A stretch of 57,658 nt of DNA from an uncultured Spirochaetaceae bacterium (GTDB lineage: Bacteria > Spirochaetota > Spirochaetia > Sphaerochaetales > Sphaerochaetaceae), in the NCBI GenBank assembly GCA_944389975.1, contig CALXOH010000049.1:1-57658 (forward strand), given 5' to 3'. The notes under the pieces are model-generated. The model ran no database searches. It had not been told where the DNA came from and saw only the letters and a list, made by a program, of their open reading frames with translations. The position numbers were made by a program, and so were the translations under genes. Position 1 is the first letter of the stretch. Every line of letters begins with the position of its first letter. Below, piece after piece: positions 6,081 through 14,203 of the stretch.

Positions 6081-7047
6081 CGTACAAGTCTCCTTGGAAG
6101 CAATTCTCCTCCTCCATCCTCTTTTCAAGGTGTGAGAGGAATTTCGATTTGTCAGGGAAAGAACGTGGTGCGACCAGACGGTGCATCGGACTTTCCCCGA
6201 TGAGTCTACCGACAATAACTTTAGAGGAAAGATTGCGTAAAAACAATATCAAGGCATCGAGGTACTCCTCCTCATCGAGTACCTTGACCCTCCCTTTCCT
6301 GTACTCCTCTTCCATCCTGGTACCCAGAAGGATTTGCAAATTGTGGATCTTCACTGCATCGGATGAGAGGTCGCTCACAAGGCGCGAAGTTCTCACCCAA
6401 TCCTCCCTTCCCTCCCCGGGAAGGCCCAGGATCACATGTGTGGACACAAGGATTGAACGCTTTTTGAGCCTTTCGACAGCATCTACGTAAGAGTCCACCG
6501 AATGCCCCCTGTTGATCCTTTCAAGTGTACGGTCATTGGCACTTTGCAATCCCAACTCGACCCAGACATCCATCTTGTCTGATCTGTATGAGGCAAGGAG
6601 GTCTATCACATCATCGGGGAGTACATCGGGCCTTGTCGATACTATAAATTCATCGAACGGGCCGTACGAGAGCCCTTCGTCATATATCCTCTTGAGTTTT
6701 TCAAGGGGCGCATAAGTGTTCGTAAACGACTGGAAATAGAGCGAGAAGCCCTCGGCATTGTACCTTGATGAGAGAAACCCCCTGCCCTTTTCTATCTGAT
6801 CCTTTAACGAAAGGATCAAGGGAGCTCTCCCTGAAAGAGACTCCTCGACAGCACTTTTATGGGTAAATCCACCTTCCCCTTTCCTCTGGTAGACTGCAAC
6901 AGCCCCGGCCACGTCACAAAACGCACATCCGCCGCTCTTGTCCTTTTCCCTGTTCGGGCAAGAAAAGCCGCCGTCTACTCCGATTCTGAAGACTCTCTTT
7001 CCGAACCGGTTCTCAAGGTATGTCGAATAGCTGTACCACCTTCTCAT
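6073..7047 (-). CDS. Radical SAM protein, TIGR01212/YhcC family
   Basis: A 324-aa radical SAM enzyme. The cluster motif is the family variant with a long first spacer: a Cys in GGFSCPNRE, then GGCAFC. The remainder shows the TIM-barrel pattern, with GLQS, STHVILGLPGEGRED (SAM-binding region) and KIHNLQ, features shared with the Elp3-like YhcC/TIGR01212 proteins, whose substrate is unknown. Start chosen at 7047: its ATG overlaps the patatin stop (ATGA) and GGAG lies about 10 nt upstream; the longer open frame is only a reading into the patatin gene. It sits between the patatin and fumarase genes in the operon. Confidence 0.88.
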   Translation of the reverse strand: MRRWYSYSTYLENRFGKRVFRIGVDGGFSCPNREKDKSGGCAFCDVAGAVAVYQRKGEGGFTHKSAVEESLSGRAPLILSLKDQIEKGRGFLSSRYNAEGFSLYFQSFTNTYAPLEKLKRIYDEGLSYGPFDEFIVSTRPDVLPDDVIDLLASYRSDKMDVWVELGLQSANDRTLERINRGHSVDSYVDAVERLKKRSILVSTHVILGLPGEGREDWVRTSRLVSDLSSDAVKIHNLQILLGTRMEEEYRKGRVKVLDEEEYLDALILFLRNLSSKVIVGRLIGESPMHRLVAPRSFPDKSKFLSHLEKRMEEENCFQGDLYDA

Positions 7048-9221
7048 ATGAACGAAACTCCGAAAGAAAGAGAGCCATGGTGATCGAAGAAGAAGTAGAT
7101 GCTCACATCCCCGAAATCCGTCGGATAGCCCAGTGCGACCTTTCCCCCGAGGGAGTAATCCGATATGAGGGCGAACGGGATGAGGTTGTCGCTTTTCGCC
7201 CAAAGCCTCTGGTGGTGCTTTTGCGGGTTCTCATACCCTTCTGCAACGAACGCAACATCGAAGTAGAGGTTTGCCGGGAGGAAGAACCGCAACCCGAGAA
7301 TGGCTGATACGTAATCCCTTGTCATGAACCCTCCTTCGGTGACCATGTAGCTTGATCCCAGAAGCGGATCGTATCGGGATGCGAACAGATCCATGTCAAA
7401 GAGGACGTTCATGAATGGAACTTCGGTCTGGAAGTTCGATTCGAACGAAAATTCCCCTTTGTAGAACAACTCCCCTTCGAGTGCGATCGAAAAATCGAAG
7501 TTGAATCCGAATCCGGTCGTGTCCGCGCCGCGCCCGACATAATTCTTGTACTCGACGAAAAGTGATGAGAGCGGATGGATCACGAACTCGCGTGGCCTGT
7601 CAGGAATTGAGGCGTCAACGCTCCTTATCTCCCCCAAGACTGCAATGTCGAGGTCGAATGTCAGGCCTAAGTTGAATTCGTTTGCAATGTCGTATGAAAG
7701 ACCCGATGAGAAAGAAGAACCGAAATCGGTAGTGTCGATCTTGTCGATCCTCCTTGGTTTTGAAAGCATCGACAACGAACCGACCCCGACGCGCCCTTCG
7801 AGAAAGAGCATCAGGCTGTCATCATCCAAAAACGTATGGTAGTAGCCGACTAATAGATCGGAGTACGAATCTATATCCAATCCGATTGCAACGTTCCCGC
7901 TCTCTCCGAGCCCGAGGTCCAGCAAGAGATCGAAGACAGGAACGAAGCTGAACGAAAAATCGTTGTTCTTGACCTGGTATGTGCCCCTGGCATCGAGTGA
8001 AAGGCCCACCGAAAGGGATGATGGAAGCTTCTCATACTCCTCGACTTCCAAGTCGATCCTCCCATCTTTTGAGAGTGAATATGTGATTGAGAGAAGGTTC
8101 TCCTTTTCCTTTATGTATCTCAGAAGCTCTTCAAGTGCCTTTGCGTTCTCTTTGTCAAAAGGTTTTGAGAGGAACTTGTCGAACTCCTTGTAGTACTCTT
8201 CAAGCCCCGGGTAGGAGATCGAAGTTATGATCAAAGGCTCGATCTCGGAGTACCTGACGACCTTCTCATCGGATGTACCCAGGATCTCTTCCAGTTCGTC
8301 GAAAACTTCCTTGTTCTCCTCTACGCACACATCACCCTTTTCAAGTATCTTCCCGCTTGATGCGAAATCCAGAACGCCGAATTCGCGTACATCGGGGATG
8401 AGCATGTAGTCAGTCTCCCTGTAGCTCTCTTCTATCCCCTCGAGCGTTATCATATCGAGAAAAACGCTCAACAGCCCTGTGAGCGTTCCTATGTTTTCTT
8501 TGTTTACGTTGTTGCTCTCGAGAGTGTTGTTCACATCAACGGAGAGTATCAAGTCGGAATCTAGTTCCTTTGCAACGCTTACCGGGATGTTATCCACCAG
8601 TCCGCCGTCGACTATGTACCTTCCATCCTCGAGCTCCACCGGAATGAAAGCAATCGGAATCGATATCGACGCGCGTATTGCATCGAAGAAGTCACCTTGA
8701 GAGAACACGACCTTCCTACCGTTTCCGATGTCGGTTCCGACAGCCCTGTACGGGATTGAGAGTTCATCGAAGTCGGTTACGCTCAATACGGATGCGAGGT
8801 TTTCCCTGATGAAGGATGCGACCAAGGCGTCGTCTATCAGACCGTTGGTCGAGCCTATGTTGTCATCGGAAAAACGTATGACTGCAATGTTGTTGAGAAA
8901 ATCCTCACCGCTTCCTCGAAGCCTTGACTCGGTTCCCCTGACGTTGAATTTCTGGAAAAGGATGGGAAGATCCGTATTTTCGACAAGCGTTCTTATCTCA
9001 TCCCCCGAATAGCCCGCTGCATAGAATGCCCCTACCAATGCACCCATCGACGTTCCGATCACGTAGTCGGGCTTTATTCCACGCCTGTCAAGCTCTTGGA
9101 GGATCGGGATGTGCGCAATTCCACGGGCACCGCCCCCTGAGAGCACCAAAGCGAAGGTAGGCTTTGAGAAAATGGGCAGCGAGAGCATCAAAAGGAGAAA
9201 GAGAGCAAAAGCCTTCTTCAT
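7044..9221 (-). CDS. Patatin-like phospholipase with C-terminal outer-membrane barrel
   Basis: A 725-aa protein: signal peptide (about 1-19), patatin domain (about 23-300) and a long beta-rich C-terminus likely to be a BamA/D15-type barrel ending in SFGVSFI, an outer-membrane style C-terminus with a terminal isoleucine. The catalytic dyad is intact: the oxyanion hole GGGARG (29-34), nucleophile S58 in GTSMG and D205 in DGG. This matches the PlpD/FplA architecture (type Vd secretion), in which a patatin lipase is linked to a barrel; a POTRA-like linker may lie around 340-400. Start at 9221 follows a GGGGGAG site, 2 nt after the fmt stop. Expected role: an outer-membrane or surface phospholipase A1/A2-like lipase. 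Confidence 0.88.
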   Translation of the reverse strand: MKKAFALFLLLMLSLPIFSKPTFALVLSGGGARGIAHIPILQELDRRGIKPDYVIGTSMGALVGAFYAAGYSGDEIRTLVENTDLPILFQKFNVRGTESRLRGSGEDFLNNIAVIRFSDDNIGSTNGLIDDALVASFIRENLASVLSVTDFDELSIPYRAVGTDIGNGRKVVFSQGDFFDAIRASISIPIAFIPVELEDGRYIVDGGLVDNIPVSVAKELDSDLILSVDVNNTLESNNVNKENIGTLTGLLSVFLDMITLEGIEESYRETDYMLIPDVREFGVLDFASSGKILEKGDVCVEENKEVFDELEEILGTSDEKVVRYSEIEPLIITSISYPGLEEYYKEFDKFLSKPFDKENAKALEELLRYIKEKENLLSITYSLSKDGRIDLEVEEYEKLPSSLSVGLSLDARGTYQVKNNDFSFSFVPVFDLLLDLGLGESGNVAIGLDIDSYSDLLVGYYHTFLDDDSLMLFLEGRVGVGSLSMLSKPRRIDKIDTTDFGSSFSSGLSYDIANEFNLGLTFDLDIAVLGEIRSVDASIPDRPREFVIHPLSSLFVEYKNYVGRGADTTGFGFNFDFSIALEGELFYKGEFSFESNFQTEVPFMNVLFDMDLFASRYDPLLGSSYMVTEGGFMTRDYVSAILGLRFFLPANLYFDVAFVAEGYENPQKHHQRLWAKSDNLIPFALISDYSLGGKVALGYPTDFGDVSIYFFFDHHGSLSFGVSFI

Positions 9222-9223
9222 CA

Positions 9224-10159
9224 CTACTCCCCCAAAACCTTTCCAAATATATCCTTTCTGCCGTTTACAAAGCTCTTTGCATCCATCTCCTTCCGGCATG
9301 CTTCCTGCACTCTTGTGACGTAGAGGTAGCCGTTCCCGGTTGCAACCTTCAAACCCTTTCCGTCCTCGTATGAAACGATCGTTCCGGGAATCTCCCCGTT
9401 CGTCTTTTCAAACGGAGCGAACACGGATGATGAAACGCCCAAGAGATAGAACGGACACCCGTCGAGGGTAGTAGTACCCTTCGGCCACGGATAAAGCGCG
9501 CGTATCAGGGCGTGAAGCTCTTCGGCGCTTTTCGAGAAGTCCAGGATGCCGTCCTCTTTCCTGATGAAATTCGTGTATGAGCCATCCCCCTCCTGACGAT
9601 GAGGAGAAAACGCATCCGGATTTGAGAAGAATGAAGAGACCATATCCCTTGCCTTGATCGAAACAATCTCCTCAAGAGTCTTCCTGTCCTCTTTTCCGTC
9701 AAGAGGGAACTCCATGCTTGAAAACACATCCCCCTCGTCCACTTTCTCGCTTATATCCTGGATCGATATCCCATACTTCCCATCCCTGTTGAGTATGGTT
9801 GCATAAAGCGGTGCGCACCCCCTGTACTTCGGAAGGATCGATGGATGGATATTGTATTTTTCAGAAAAGCACGAGAGGAATTTCGGTCCGAATATCTTTC
9901 CATAGCAGAACGAAACAAGGGTATCTGCCTTCGCTTCCGCTACGATGTACTCCCTCTCCTTTCTACCTATCCTCTCGGGCTGGAAGACCGGGATTGAGAA
10001 AGAAAGTGCGATCTCCTTTATCTTCGGAGGAATCAGCTTGTTGCCGCGCTTTCCCCTCTGATCCGGAGCTGTGAGGAGCATCGAAACGAGGTTTTTCTCC
10101 ACGAGGGCTTCGAATGCGGGGATCGCTATATCCCCTGTTGCTGCAAAAACAATCTTCAC
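9224..10159 (-). CDS. Methionyl-tRNA formyltransferase
   Basis: A 311-aa formyltransferase that formylates initiator Met-tRNA with 10-formyl-THF. The N-terminal Rossmann domain carries FAATGDIA in place of the usual FxGTP-type loop and the catalytic-site region NIHPSILPKYRGCAPL (Asn/His), followed by a C-terminal OB-like domain. The length is typical (about 310-315). It overlaps def by 4 nt, the classic def-fmt pair, so the formyl group added here is removed by the upstream-encoded enzyme. Confidence 0.96.
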   Translation of the reverse strand: MKIVFAATGDIAIPAFEALVEKNLVSMLLTAPDQRGKRGNKLIPPKIKEIALSFSIPVFQPERIGRKEREYIVAEAKADTLVSFCYGKIFGPKFLSCFSEKYNIHPSILPKYRGCAPLYATILNRDGKYGISIQDISEKVDEGDVFSSMEFPLDGKEDRKTLEEIVSIKARDMVSSFFSNPDAFSPHRQEGDGSYTNFIRKEDGILDFSKSAEELHALIRALYPWPKGTTTLDGCPFYLLGVSSSVFAPFEKTNGEIPGTIVSYEDGKGLKVATGNGYLYVTRVQEACRKEMDAKSFVNGRKDIFGKVLGE

Positions 10160-10725: not shown

Positions 10726-12705
10726 TCACGATATGTCCACCGGATCCACATCAATCTCAAGGTACGCGCCCGAAGGAACCTTATAAAGCGCTTCAACTTC
10801 ATCAAGCAGGACAAGAAGCCTTGAAAAGGCCTTTTCCTTTGAAGAGATGAGCACATGATATCTATAGTATGTGTTTTTCCTCTCCACAAGGCAACTTGTT
10901 GCAGGATACACTTCGACCCCCTCCAGCTTTGATGTGAGCGCTCTCAAAACCCTCTCCAGCTCAAATGCGCCGGTCCGCGCCTTCTCCTCGACTTTCGAAC
11001 GGAGCGTGTAATCCACGAGTCGTGAGTACGGGGGGAAATCCAAAGCCCGCCTTGCATCCAGTTCTTCGTAATAGAACTCTTCGTCCTCGTTGAGTTCTAT
11101 CGCCCTTATCGCGCGGTTTGCAACCTCCGAGGTCTGTACGATGACCTTTCCGTCGGGCCTGTAGCGACCGACGCGGCCTGCAACCTGCTTCAAAAGCTCG
11201 TAAGTCCTCTCATTGGCCCTGAACGAAGGAACGTGCAAGGAGATGTCTGCATTCACGACCCCCACGAGCGAGACCAGTGGGAAATTCAACCCTTTTGCAA
11301 TCATCTGTGTTCCGAGGAGTATGTCTATCCTCCCCTCTTTGAAGTCGCTTAAAACCTTTGCAATGTATTTCCTGTCCCCGCCCGATGCATCCGAGTCCAA
11401 CCGGCACACCTTCTTGAATGGAAAGAGCCTTCTGACTTCATCCTCTATCTGCTCGGTACCGAACCCAACCGATTTGATATCGTGGCTCGAACAGTTCGGG
11501 CAAACCTCGGGAAGCTTCTCGGAGTAGCCGCATATGTGGCACTCAAGACGGTGCCTTCTCTTGTGGTAAGTGAGCGAGACGGAACAGTTCGGGCATTGGA
11601 AAGTCTCCCCGCAGGTGTTGCAGTGTAGGCTCTCTGAGTACCCACGCCTATTCAGAAAGAGAATAACGCCCTTTCCCTCCTTGAATTCCCTCTCCATCTG
11701 GGTTTTAAGCGCATCTGAAATCAAAGTACGGGATGAGAGGATGTTGACGACCTTGACAGTCGGGAACGCGCCATCCCCGATCCTGTTTCTCATCCTTATC
11801 TCCTCAATCCTGCCATTTCTCATCGCTTCAAACGATTCGAATGAGGGGGTTGCAGAGCCCATCACCAATAGTGCGTCGTTGTACTCGCTTCTCATCTGGG
11901 CGATCTGACGCGCATGATAGCGCGGACTGTTTCCGCTTTTGTAGCTTTGCTCATGCTCTTCATCGAGGATTATGAGGCCGAGGTTTTCAAACGGAGCGAA
12001 GACAGCGCTCCGTGCACCGATTACGAACTTCACATCCCCGTTTCTTATCGCCCTATGAGCCTTCAGCCTTTGACTGGGTGTAAGGGATGAGTGCATGATC
12101 GCAACTTTCTTGTCAAAACGTTCGTACACTTCCGAAGAGACCTGCTCGGAAAGTGTTATCTCAGGCACCAGGAAAAGAACCTGCCTTCCTTTTTCGATCT
12201 CCTCCTCTGCAAGGCGCATGTAAACTTCGCTTTTGCCCGATCCTGTGACTCCGTAGATGTAGAAAACCCTCTTTCCATCCTTTCTTTTCTCCCTTATCTC
12301 GGAAAGCGCCCTCTCCTGATCGGGTGAGAGGTTCTCGATCCTCTTGAAAGACGACGGCATGAAAAGAGGTGATGACTCCACTTCCCTCCGTGCATTTGGA
12401 ACCATCAGCGAAAGCGCCTCCCCGACCGAGCACTTGTATAAGAAAGCCATCCTCCCGGCGAGGACAACCTGCTCTTTGGATATCACGCTCTCGTCGTCAA
12501 GCACCCTCTTTATCGCTTTGATCTCGTATCCGCACTCTCCGATCGAATCATCGACGCTGAGAACGAAACCCACGAGCTCCTTCTTCCTGTTTCCAAAAGG
12601 AACTATGACCCGCCTGTAGAGTATCTCCTCATCCGAGTCGAATGAGTAGGTGAACGTGCTGTTCTTCATTGGCACTTTCAATGCGACGTTGCAATACCGG
12701 ATCAT
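10726..12705 (-). CDS. Primosomal protein N' (replication restart helicase PriA)
   Basis: A 659-aa superfamily 2 helicase that reloads the replisome at stalled forks. The N-terminal DNA-binding domain (about 1-110) is followed by Walker A GVTGSGKSE and the DEEH box (LDEEHEQSYKS). The zinc-binding insert has CNTCGETFQCPNC and then CHICGY and CPNC, i.e. all eight expected cysteines. The start at 12705 overlaps the preceding stop codon as ATGA; a longer open frame upstream runs over the neighbouring gene and has no PriA similarity. The length is slightly shorter than E. coli PriA (732) but normal for the family. Confidence 0.96.
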   Translation of the reverse strand: MIRYCNVALKVPMKNSTFTYSFDSDEEILYRRVIVPFGNRKKELVGFVLSVDDSIGECGYEIKAIKRVLDDESVISKEQVVLAGRMAFLYKCSVGEALSLMVPNARREVESSPLFMPSSFKRIENLSPDQERALSEIREKRKDGKRVFYIYGVTGSGKSEVYMRLAEEEIEKGRQVLFLVPEITLSEQVSSEVYERFDKKVAIMHSSLTPSQRLKAHRAIRNGDVKFVIGARSAVFAPFENLGLIILDEEHEQSYKSGNSPRYHARQIAQMRSEYNDALLVMGSATPSFESFEAMRNGRIEEIRMRNRIGDGAFPTVKVVNILSSRTLISDALKTQMEREFKEGKGVILFLNRRGYSESLHCNTCGETFQCPNCSVSLTYHKRRHRLECHICGYSEKLPEVCPNCSSHDIKSVGFGTEQIEDEVRRLFPFKKVCRLDSDASGGDRKYIAKVLSDFKEGRIDILLGTQMIAKGLNFPLVSLVGVVNADISLHVPSFRANERTYELLKQVAGRVGRYRPDGKVIVQTSEVANRAIRAIELNEDEEFYYEELDARRALDFPPYSRLVDYTLRSKVEEKARTGAFELERVLRALTSKLEGVEVYPATSCLVERKNTYYRYHVLISSKEKAFSRLLVLLDEVEALYKVPSGAYLEIDVDPVDIS

Positions 12706-13361
12706 TTCCCGAGATGCTCCAAAGCAAATAGAAGATCCTCCATGACAGCCTTCTTGAGCTTGGGATTTGAAATGCACTCCTTCTGGCTGTATGTTGCGAT
12801 CGTCTCGACGCCGTTTATGTTGAAAACCTTCTTCCTCACATCGTCCATTTTCCCATGCCACCTCGATTTAAGCATGTAGCGCGCCGTATCGGAACCGAAA
12901 AGTATCATCAGACGGGGCTTGAGGAACGCCATCTCCGCCCTGAGATGTATCTTGCAGAGATCAGCGTACTTTTCATCGAATGTGTTGCTGTAGCACTTGA
13001 GGATGGAGGAAAGCCTCCGCTTTGAAAAACCCAGCTTCAATACGTTCTCCATCTCCTTCGTGTACATCACCTCCTCTTCCCTCGTCAAAAGCGATGCGGG
13101 GCTTGATGGAAGCGCGACGACCGAAAGCACATCGATCTGATCGAAAGGAAGATCGGGCGTGATGACCTTGCTACGCCAGAGCGGGCAGCTGTGGCAATCC
13201 CTGTAGTCGTCACCAGGAACGTTCCCCCCACTCTCTTTTCCTTGAAGCATCACAGTGTATTCCAGCTTGCCATCCTTCTCATGGAGGTAGTCTTTATCCA
13301 AAAGTGCTTTTGCATCATCCAGAAGCGAGAGGAGCAACTCCTTTCCGGTATCTTCCTTCAC
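12702..13361 (-). CDS. Degenerate family 4 uracil-DNA glycosylase-like Fe-S protein
   Basis: A 219-aa protein that aligns end to end with family 4 UDGs. Four cysteines sit where the [4Fe-4S] ligands belong: CHSC, then KC plus C with 13 residues between. The ILFGSDTARYML strand-helix and the NPKLKKAVMEDL C-terminus also match. Both catalytic motifs are lost, however: the GEAPG loop reads VALPSSP, and the ATYHP motif reads ATYSQ, without the histidine. It is therefore probably not an active UDG; it may be structural or a DNA-binding relative. I prefer the GTG at 13361, which overlaps the truA stop (GTGA) after GGGGGGAGGAG; an ATG at 13385 is the alternative. Confidence 0.7.
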   Translation of the reverse strand: MKEDTGKELLLSLLDDAKALLDKDYLHEKDGKLEYTVMLQGKESGGNVPGDDYRDCHSCPLWRSKVITPDLPFDQIDVLSVVALPSSPASLLTREEEVMYTKEMENVLKLGFSKRRLSSILKCYSNTFDEKYADLCKIHLRAEMAFLKPRLMILFGSDTARYMLKSRWHGKMDDVRKKVFNINGVETIATYSQKECISNPKLKKAVMEDLLFALEHLGK

Positions 13362-14203
13362 CTCTCCTCCCCCCTTTCGAACCATTCGTATTTCCCGCTG
13401 TCGTAACTCACTTCCGCAAGGTAAAGCCCGTCGGGTGGCGCTGTCTTTCCAACCTTCATGCGATCCTTTGACGCCAAAAGCTCCCTGAACTCGTCCTTGC
13501 TTTTTCCCTTCTTTGCAAATTCAAGCATGCTTCCGACCATGCTTCTCACCTGATGGTACAAAAATGCGTTCCCCGCAACCCTGTACCTTAGAAGGGGAAG
13601 TGAGAACTTGTCGCTTATCATATCCCATCCGGATACGTATACATCCCTCATCTTTGAAAGCGACTTGTCCCGGCTTGAGGAGAATGTAGTGAAGTCGTGC
13701 GTACCTTTCAATACCGACGCATAAGTATCCAAGAGATCGATCGGGGGAAGTTTCTCCACCTGGCACACGTAACCTGAATCAAATGGAAGGAACGACTGGT
13801 AGTCCTTGACAAGGTACCAATACTCCCTGCTCATCGTCGAATAACGGGCATGGAAAGGTCCTTCGGCATCCTCTGAAGAGAGGATTCTTATGCCCTTTTT
13901 AAGCCTTGTATTGAGTATGACTTTGAACTTTTCCCCGTCTATTCCGACCGGGAAATCAAAGTGTGCAACCTGCATCAACGCATGAACCCCGCTGTCGGTA
14001 CGGCCCGAGCCCTGCACCACGACCCGACGCGATAGCATCTCCGAAAGCACCCGCTCGATCTCCCCTTGGACCGAGACCTCCCCGTTCTGGCTTTGCCATC
14101 CGTGGAATAGCGAACCGTCGTATGAGAGCGTGAGGATCACCCGGCGCTCCCCCTCCTTCGGAAGGGGAAACGAATCAGGTCTCTTCCAGTCACTTCTCGC
14201 CAT
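13358..14203 (-). CDS. tRNA pseudouridine(38-40) synthase TruA
   Basis: A 281-aa pseudouridine synthase that modifies positions 38-40 of the tRNA anticodon stem. Visible are LSYDGSLFHGWQ, the catalytic aspartate D70 in GSGRTDSGVHA, the FHARYSTMSREYWYL motif and YHQVRSMVG. The N-terminus is about 15 residues longer than usual. It overlaps acpS by 14 nt upstream and the UDG-like gene downstream. Confidence 0.96.
   Translation of the reverse strand: MARSDWKRPDSFPLPKEGERRVILTLSYDGSLFHGWQSQNGEVSVQGEIERVLSEMLSRRVVVQGSGRTDSGVHALMQVAHFDFPVGIDGEKFKVILNTRLKKGIRILSSEDAEGPFHARYSTMSREYWYLVKDYQSFLPFDSGYVCQVEKLPPIDLLDTYASVLKGTHDFTTFSSSRDKSLSKMRDVYVSGWDMISDKFSLPLLRYRVAGNAFLYHQVRSMVGSMLEFAKKGKSKDEFRELLASKDRMKVGKTAPPDGLYLAEVSYDSGKYEWFERGEER

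What the first reader, a model, noticed from the sequence alone, without database searches (positions are those of the whole stretch)
12702..13361. UDG-like protein with intact cluster cysteines but lost catalytic motifs
Family 4 UDG alignment is end to end, with all four Fe-S cysteines kept, yet GEAPG is VALPSSP and the HP motif is replaced by SQ. Conservation of the cluster with loss of catalysis suggests a DNA- or RNA-binding role. It is translationally coupled to truA and priA.
Basis: partly seen in the sequence, partly recalled or inferred. Interest (0 to 1): 0.55.

Follow-up and report, generated by a model that had tools for sequence, protein, structure and literature searches.

The report
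Dead DNA-repair enzyme kept by spirochetes
A gene in a gut spirochete is the descendant of a DNA-repair enzyme that has lost every residue known to do the chemistry, yet its iron-sulfur site and its place in the genome are kept in nearly all its relatives, in a pattern that suggests a second repair enzyme took over the old job.

Summary
The minus-strand ORF 12702-13361 is an end-to-end homologue of family-4 uracil-DNA glycosylase (UDG4). Its AlphaFold model (pLDDT 90.7) matches solved UDG4s at Z 21. All four Fe-S cysteines are present; none of the seven uracil-pocket residues known from Thermus UDGa is kept. It is not a local oddity. In the window's genus (Ca. Ornithospirochaeta, by contig matches) and sister genus (includes Bullifex porci), 61 of 61 complete copies keep the four cysteines, while Glu41 is kept in 3 of 62, Asn80 in 0 and His155 in 2. 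The gene sits between truA and priA, as intact UDG4 does elsewhere in the class. In the family, 0 of 62 genomes with family-1 Ung have a UDG4 over the NCBIfam cut-off; 68 of 77 without Ung do. Class-wide (327 genomes) the two are nearly exclusive. Close pairs show dN/dS 0.07-0.17, like the active enzyme. An N-terminal segment, variable in active UDG4s, became as conserved as the core. In Borreliaceae the positional orthologue has lost the cysteines too but persists. Best reading: a catalytically dead UDG4 pseudoenzyme kept for a non-catalytic, probably protein-binding role.

The parts
12702..13361 (-). UDG4-derived pseudoenzyme, GTG start, 219 aa (an in-frame ATG at 13385 would give 227 aa)
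13257..13349 (-). N-terminal segment, residues 13-43 of the 227-aa numbering, newly conserved in the degenerate clade (D23, D32, Y43)
   Evidence: does not overlap truA
13185..13196 (-). CHSC: cysteines 64 and 67, cluster ligands 1 and 2
13098..13124 (-). former motif A (GEAPG), now SVVALPSSP
13005..13007 (-). Ser127 at the place of the uracil-binding Asn80
12993..12995 (-). cysteine 131, cluster ligand 3
12954..12956 (-). cysteine 144, cluster ligand 4
12783..12788 (-). SQ at the place of the catalytic motif B His155-Pro
13358..14203 (-). truA, tRNA pseudouridine synthase, 4-base overlap with the pseudoenzyme
   Evidence: gene name from similarity recalled, not from a family scan
10726..12705 (-). 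priA, replication restart helicase, ATGA overlap with the pseudoenzyme's stop
   Evidence: gene name from similarity recalled, not from a family scan

Best explanation
The gene is the orthologue, by place and descent, of the family-4 uracil-DNA glycosylase that spirochetes of this class carry between truA and priA. In lineages that hold family-1 Ung, uracil excision is most likely done by Ung, and the family-4 protein has lost its catalytic pocket. It did not vanish. It remained as a folded, Fe-S-bearing pseudoenzyme under purifying selection, with constraint shifted from the active site to an N-terminal segment. The most likely mode of action is non-catalytic: a cluster-stabilised scaffold that binds a partner protein through the N-terminal segment and the conserved C-terminal part, probably a function the active ancestor already had. 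Shown: homology and predicted fold, loss of pocket residues, cysteine retention, synteny, selection, near-exclusion with Ung. Inferred: absence of activity, presence of the cluster, order of events, protein binding. The partner is unknown.
For: Fold: AF2 pLDDT 90.7, pTM 0.75; Z 21.4, rmsd 2.4 over 174 residues to 4zbx. Pocket residues: 45 of 47 canonical sequences keep 7 of 7 and two keep 6; the window keeps 0; g1+g2 keep E41 in 3 of 62, E47 in 0, N80 in 0, N89 in 0, H155 in 2. In Tth UDGa, H155S costs over three orders of magnitude in k2 and E41Q about 900-fold in k2/Km (PMC5387724 passages). Cysteines: kept in 61 of 61 complete g1+g2 copies, with both TGC and TGT in use at every site. dN/dS in the seven degenerate pairs with dS under 1 is 0.07-0.17; eight canonical pairs at dS under 0.9 give 0.08-0.32. 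Ung against UDG4: family 0 of 62 against 68 of 77; class, 99 Ung over cut-off and 198 UDG4 over cut-off among 327, overlap at most one borderline genome, G553. Ung proteins keep GQDPY and HPSP in 21 of 21 read. The locus is kept in every g1+g2 genome where it is assembled; G048 has a contig end after truA and G016 has no truA match. N-terminal to core identity ratio 1.05 (g1) and 1.04 (g2) against 0.74 within canonical genus g16 and 0.44 across canonical genera.
Against: Five g1 genomes (G029, G030, G057, G059, G062; four of them 1.4-1.5 Mb), one g2 (G003, 62% complete) and g3 (G017) have the degenerate protein without Ung. In all five g1 genomes it is the only PF03167 hit, so residual activity there cannot be excluded; G030 and G059 keep the His. 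g4 shows partial erosion without Ung. Fourteen of 15 g2 copies have Asp in the Glu41 column. Exclusion with Ung is a correlation among related genomes and does not order the events. No partner, cluster or activity was tested. The N-terminal comparison depends on the alignment of a loosely conserved region.
Confidence: 0.66

Rival explanations
1. A non-catalytic nucleic-acid-binding protein: the cluster and fold still bind DNA or RNA.
For: UDG fold and cluster ligands retained; neighbours truA and priA act on tRNA and on replication forks (established knowledge of those families).
Against: The loop arginines are lost in 62 of 62 and the motif-B arginine is kept in only 6 of 62; the loop is shortened. 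Synteny predates the loss. In Borreliaceae the cysteines are gone while the gene stays.
Confidence: 0.17
2. A glycosylase with changed specificity that uses other residues.
For: Asp in the Glu41 column in 14 of 15 g2 copies; Pro of motif B kept in 43 of 62; sole PF03167 member in five g1 genomes; MUG/TDG-type members are recalled to lack the His.
Against: Pocket columns vary freely within g1 and no new acidic residue is fixed there. The window keeps 0 of 7.
Confidence: 0.1
3. A decaying relic with no function, kept open by operon overlap with priA.
For: Recurrent erosion in several families, some without cysteines; ATGA and GTGA overlaps.
Against: dN/dS 0.07-0.17; invariant cysteines at about 40% mean identity; newly conserved N-terminal segment; no stop inside any g1 or g2 row.
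Confidence: 0.07

Closest known systems
Family-4 UDG (UDGa, TIGR00758; T. thermophilus 1ui0, S. tokodaii 4zbx)
   Same: fold (Z 20-21), four cysteines, truA-priA locus in this class
   Different: no Glu41, Glu47, Phe54, Asn80, Asn89 or His155; loop arginines lost; 30.1 against a 125.3-bit cut-off
UdgX (family-4 derivative that cross-links to DNA; 6ail, 6ajo)
   Same: family-4 fold (Z about 18); altered motif A
   Different: UdgX keeps E52, H178 and the R-loop His109 (PMC10359453 passages); none is seen here
Borreliaceae ORF between truA and priA (BB_0013 in B. burgdorferi by recall)
   Same: same locus; UDG4-like C-terminal half (hhalign 97%, E 8.8e-11); lost catalytic residues; Ung present
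   Different: cluster cysteines lost as well
Family-1 Ung (TIGR00628)
   Same: carried by the same genome (L039, 244.5 bits); does the ancestral chemistry (established knowledge)
   Different: different motifs; no Fe-S site (recalled); gene on another contig

Membership tests
Family-4 UDG (TIGR00758) | score over the curated cut-off of 125.3 bits | tested here: not met
   30.1 bits
Family-4 UDG (TIGR00758) | four cluster cysteines in the family-4 order | tested here: met
   C64, C67, C131, C144; the loop between the last two is shorter
Family-4 UDG (TIGR00758) | motif A GE(A/G)PG with catalytic Glu | tested here: not met
   VALPS in the window; Glu in 3 of 62 g1+g2 copies
Family-4 UDG (TIGR00758) | uracil-binding Asn80 before KC | tested here: not met
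   Ser127; 0 of 62
Family-4 UDG (TIGR00758) | motif B His155-Pro | tested here: not met
   SQ in the window; His in 2 of 62
Family-4 UDG (TIGR00758) | UDG4 fold (predicted model) | tested here: met
   Z 21.4 to 4zbx
Family-4 UDG (TIGR00758) | uracil excision from DNA | not testable with these tools
   no assay
Family-4 UDG (TIGR00758) | orthology by locus (truA-UDG4-priA) | tested here: met
   46 of 47 g1, 14 of 15 g2 and 44 of 47 canonical loci scored adjacent on both sides; the others lack truA on the fetched stretch or have overlapping frames
UdgX | GEQPG motif A and R-loop KRRIH | tested here: not met
   neither motif in the window protein; TIGR03914 13.6 of 189.95 bits

The most novel reading that the evidence does not exclude
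Family-4 UDG in spirochetes has an essential or near-essential second function, independent of catalysis, carried by its N-terminal extension and C-terminal half. Whenever family-1 Ung is present, the catalytic half is free to decay, and this happened in parallel in several families. The end state, seen in Borreliaceae, is a protein with neither active site nor cluster that still occupies the truA-priA slot. The Ornithospirochaeta/Bullifex protein would be an intermediate that keeps the Fe-S cluster for structure or redox sensing while binding a replication or repair partner.
Probability: 0.35. Interest if true: 0.78.

Novelty: new variant of a known kind. Interest (0 to 1): 0.6.

Why it matters
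It looks like a natural experiment, apparently repeated, that separates the Fe-S cluster of UDG4 from its catalysis: the cluster ligands outlive the active site in one branch and are lost in another, while the gene stays. Why UDG4 carries a cluster at all is an old question; here is a set of proteins in which the cluster is unlikely to be serving uracil excision. It also suggests an identity for a Borreliaceae gene that gives only a trace profile match (16.3 bits), and warns that UDG annotation of these genes may be misleading.

Tried and rejected
Single-protein phmmer against PDB gave only chance hits; the profile was needed. A genome-contig scan with the single protein found no relative. Of these 55, 54 went into alignment A3; L181 was left out as a near copy of L178. 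Considered and rejected: an intact UDG4 paralogue elsewhere (one TIGR00758 match per g1/g2 genome, except a second weak one in G005); a stopped pseudogene (no stop inside g1 and g2 rows). Independence of the g10 loss: the TruA+PriA tree puts g10 with canonical genera and its Ung nests among g1/g2 Ung (100/100), but the AU test does not reject one clade (p 0.079). I did not order Ung gain against UDG4 loss. Eleven of the 101 family genomes with a match were not fetched (nine g16, one g18, one g21).

In f70, f66 and f67 only scores were seen, not UDG4 sequences. dN/dS pairs with dS of 1 or more (16 of 23 degenerate pairs) and canonical pairs with dS over 0.9 (5 of 13) were set aside as near saturation. 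Papers: PMC5387724, PMC10359453, PMC5295032, PMC6117026, PMC3147059, PMC12236494 and PMC5122711 were seen as found passages only; PMC2327290 as the start of its abstract in a listing; PMC3418143 is not held. Searches that could have shown a dead UDG4 or work on BB0013 were made; none listed one, apart from antisense RNA to BB_0013.

Full report
Observation. The minus-strand ORF ending at 12702 begins with GTG at 13361 behind a good ribosome-binding site, and overlaps truA by GTGA and priA by ATGA. It carries CHSC, KC and DLC, matching the four family-4 UDG cluster ligands, and lacks GEAPG and HP. A single-sequence scan sees only the C-terminal part and stays below curated cut-offs. Profiles built from relatives show homology over 218 columns with canonical spirochete UDG4s (E 2.9e-36) and with solved UDG4s (4zbx E 1.5e-23, 1ui0 E 2.5e-17). 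The AlphaFold model (pLDDT 90.7, pTM 0.75) superposes on 4zbx with Z 21.4 and on 1ui0 with Z 20.4.

Which organism. The window lies in a 1.95-Mb, 51-contig genome, 97.7% complete. Contigs of the same length link its genus (g1) to Candidatus Ornithospirochaeta MAGs and the sister genus (g2) to Bullifex porci and Candidatus Aphodenecus. This naming rests on contig matches, not on a marker phylogeny.

What is lost. PMC5387724 lists Glu41, Gly42, Glu47, Phe54, Asn80 and His155 around the uracil in Tth UDGa and adds Asn89 for catalysis; H155S costs over three orders of magnitude in k2 and E41Q about 900-fold in k2/Km (passages and Table 1). I placed these on an alignment of 116 orthologues. Of 47 canonical sequences, 45 keep all seven and two keep six. 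The window keeps none. Among 62 g1+g2 copies, Glu41 is kept in 3, Glu47 in 0, Asn80 in 0, Asn89 in 0, His155 in 2 and Phe54 in 26. The arginines of the cluster loop are kept in 0 of 62, and the loop is shorter.

What is kept. The first two cysteines are present in 61 of 61 complete g1+g2 copies (the 62nd, L060, is cut by a contig edge) and the last two in 62 of 62. In a second, overlapping set of 55 (window plus 54 proteins of named loci) the four cysteines are the only invariant columns. Each cysteine column uses both TGC and TGT. dN/dS in the seven g1 or g2 pairs with dS under 1 is 0.07-0.17, against 0.05-0.14 for TruA in the same pairs; eight canonical pairs at dS under 0.9 give 0.08-0.32. 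More distant pairs are near saturation and were not used.

What is new. An N-terminal segment (EYxLSLLDDAER....D.L.E...Y) upstream of CxxC is as conserved as the core in g1 and g2 (best-window to core ratio 1.05 and 1.04), but 0.74 within canonical genus g16 and 0.44 across 41 canonical family members, each group aligned on its own. Motifs A and B go the other way: relative conservation 1.41 in canonical against 0.91 (g1) and 1.05 (g2), and 1.71 against 1.02 and 1.21. The segment starts outside the truA overlap.

Where it sits. truA-X-priA is the place of intact UDG4 too: both neighbours scored adjacent in 44 of 47 canonical loci, 46 of 47 g1 and 14 of 15 g2. The remaining g1, g2 and canonical loci lack truA on the fetched stretch or have overlapping reading frames. 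One g22 copy (L106) lies elsewhere. So the gene is the orthologue by position, and coupling to truA and priA says nothing about a new role.

Displacement by Ung. In the family (139 genomes), Ung over cut-off occurs in 62: g1 43 of 48, g2 15 of 16, g10 1 of 1, g22 3 of 3, and nowhere else. None of these 62 has a UDG4 over cut-off; 68 of the other 77 do. The nine exceptions are G029, G030, G057, G059, G062, G003, G017, G018 (122.9 bits) and G084 (its truA stretch ends at truA). Class-wide (327 genomes), 99 have Ung and 198 have UDG4 over cut-off; from the E-values at most one genome (G553, f70, at the threshold) has both. Ung-bearing families are f1, f7, f12, f13, f17, f66, f67 and f70. Sequences read in f12, f13, f17 and f7 are degenerate. 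Relatedness makes these counts non-independent. In the Ung tree, g1, g2 and g10 form one clade (100/100), while f12 and f13 form clades of their own; g22 stands outside the g1/g2 clade although its TruA/PriA group with g1+g2. This suggests more than one arrival of Ung. In all five Ung-less g1 genomes the degenerate protein is the only PF03167 hit, the main argument against complete loss of function.

Borreliaceae. Family f12 contains Borreliella chilensis and Borrelia anserina, by plasmid identity. Its ORF between truA and priA matches UDG4 over 99 C-terminal columns (97% probability, E 8.8e-11) and was found in 15 of 15 f12 genomes searched. It has no CxxC, no KC and no fourth ligand. Its dN/dS is 0.17-0.32 in the twelve closest pairs. 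By recall this is BB_0013; the papers searched mention it only as the target of an antisense RNA. The abstract of PMC2327290, seen in a listing, states that B. burgdorferi contains no intracellular iron, which fits loss of the cluster ligands.

Reading. The simplest account is displacement followed by re-use: Ung takes over uracil excision, the UDG4 pocket decays, and the protein is kept for something else. The loss of DNA-contact residues and the gain of constraint in the N-terminal segment favour a protein partner over nucleic acid. The partner is unknown and the order of events is not shown. The protein failed four defining features of functional family-4 UDG (score, motif A, Asn80, motif B), so it should not be filed as a working member; it is the family's orthologue at this locus.

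Noticed in passing
L040 (G000:C28:18423-18830): The same genome carries a DNA-deoxyinosine glycosylase (TIGR04274, 113.7 bits) besides Ung, so three UDG-fold proteins in all.
   Followed up: partly
L154-L168, between truA and priA: A Borreliaceae ORF is a UDG4 remnant without active-site residues or cluster cysteines, kept in 15 of 15 genomes searched.
   Followed up: partly
L152, L153 (family f13) and L151 (family f7): Further UDG4 remnants without the cluster cysteines; f13 ends RYG/RYA, resembling the Borreliaceae GIIKYG end.
   Followed up: no
L148 (family f17): Degenerate UDG4 (GDCPS, TSVLKC, TYDP) with four cysteines in an Ung-bearing genome, another candidate parallel case.
   Followed up: no
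G380, G414 (f10), G515, G537 (f72), G470 (f17), G469 (f65): Weak UDG4 scores without a listed Ung match; sequences not read.
   Followed up: no
window 7044-9299: Patatin-like phospholipase ORF (by eye) with a long C-terminal part that looks like a beta-barrel.
   Followed up: no
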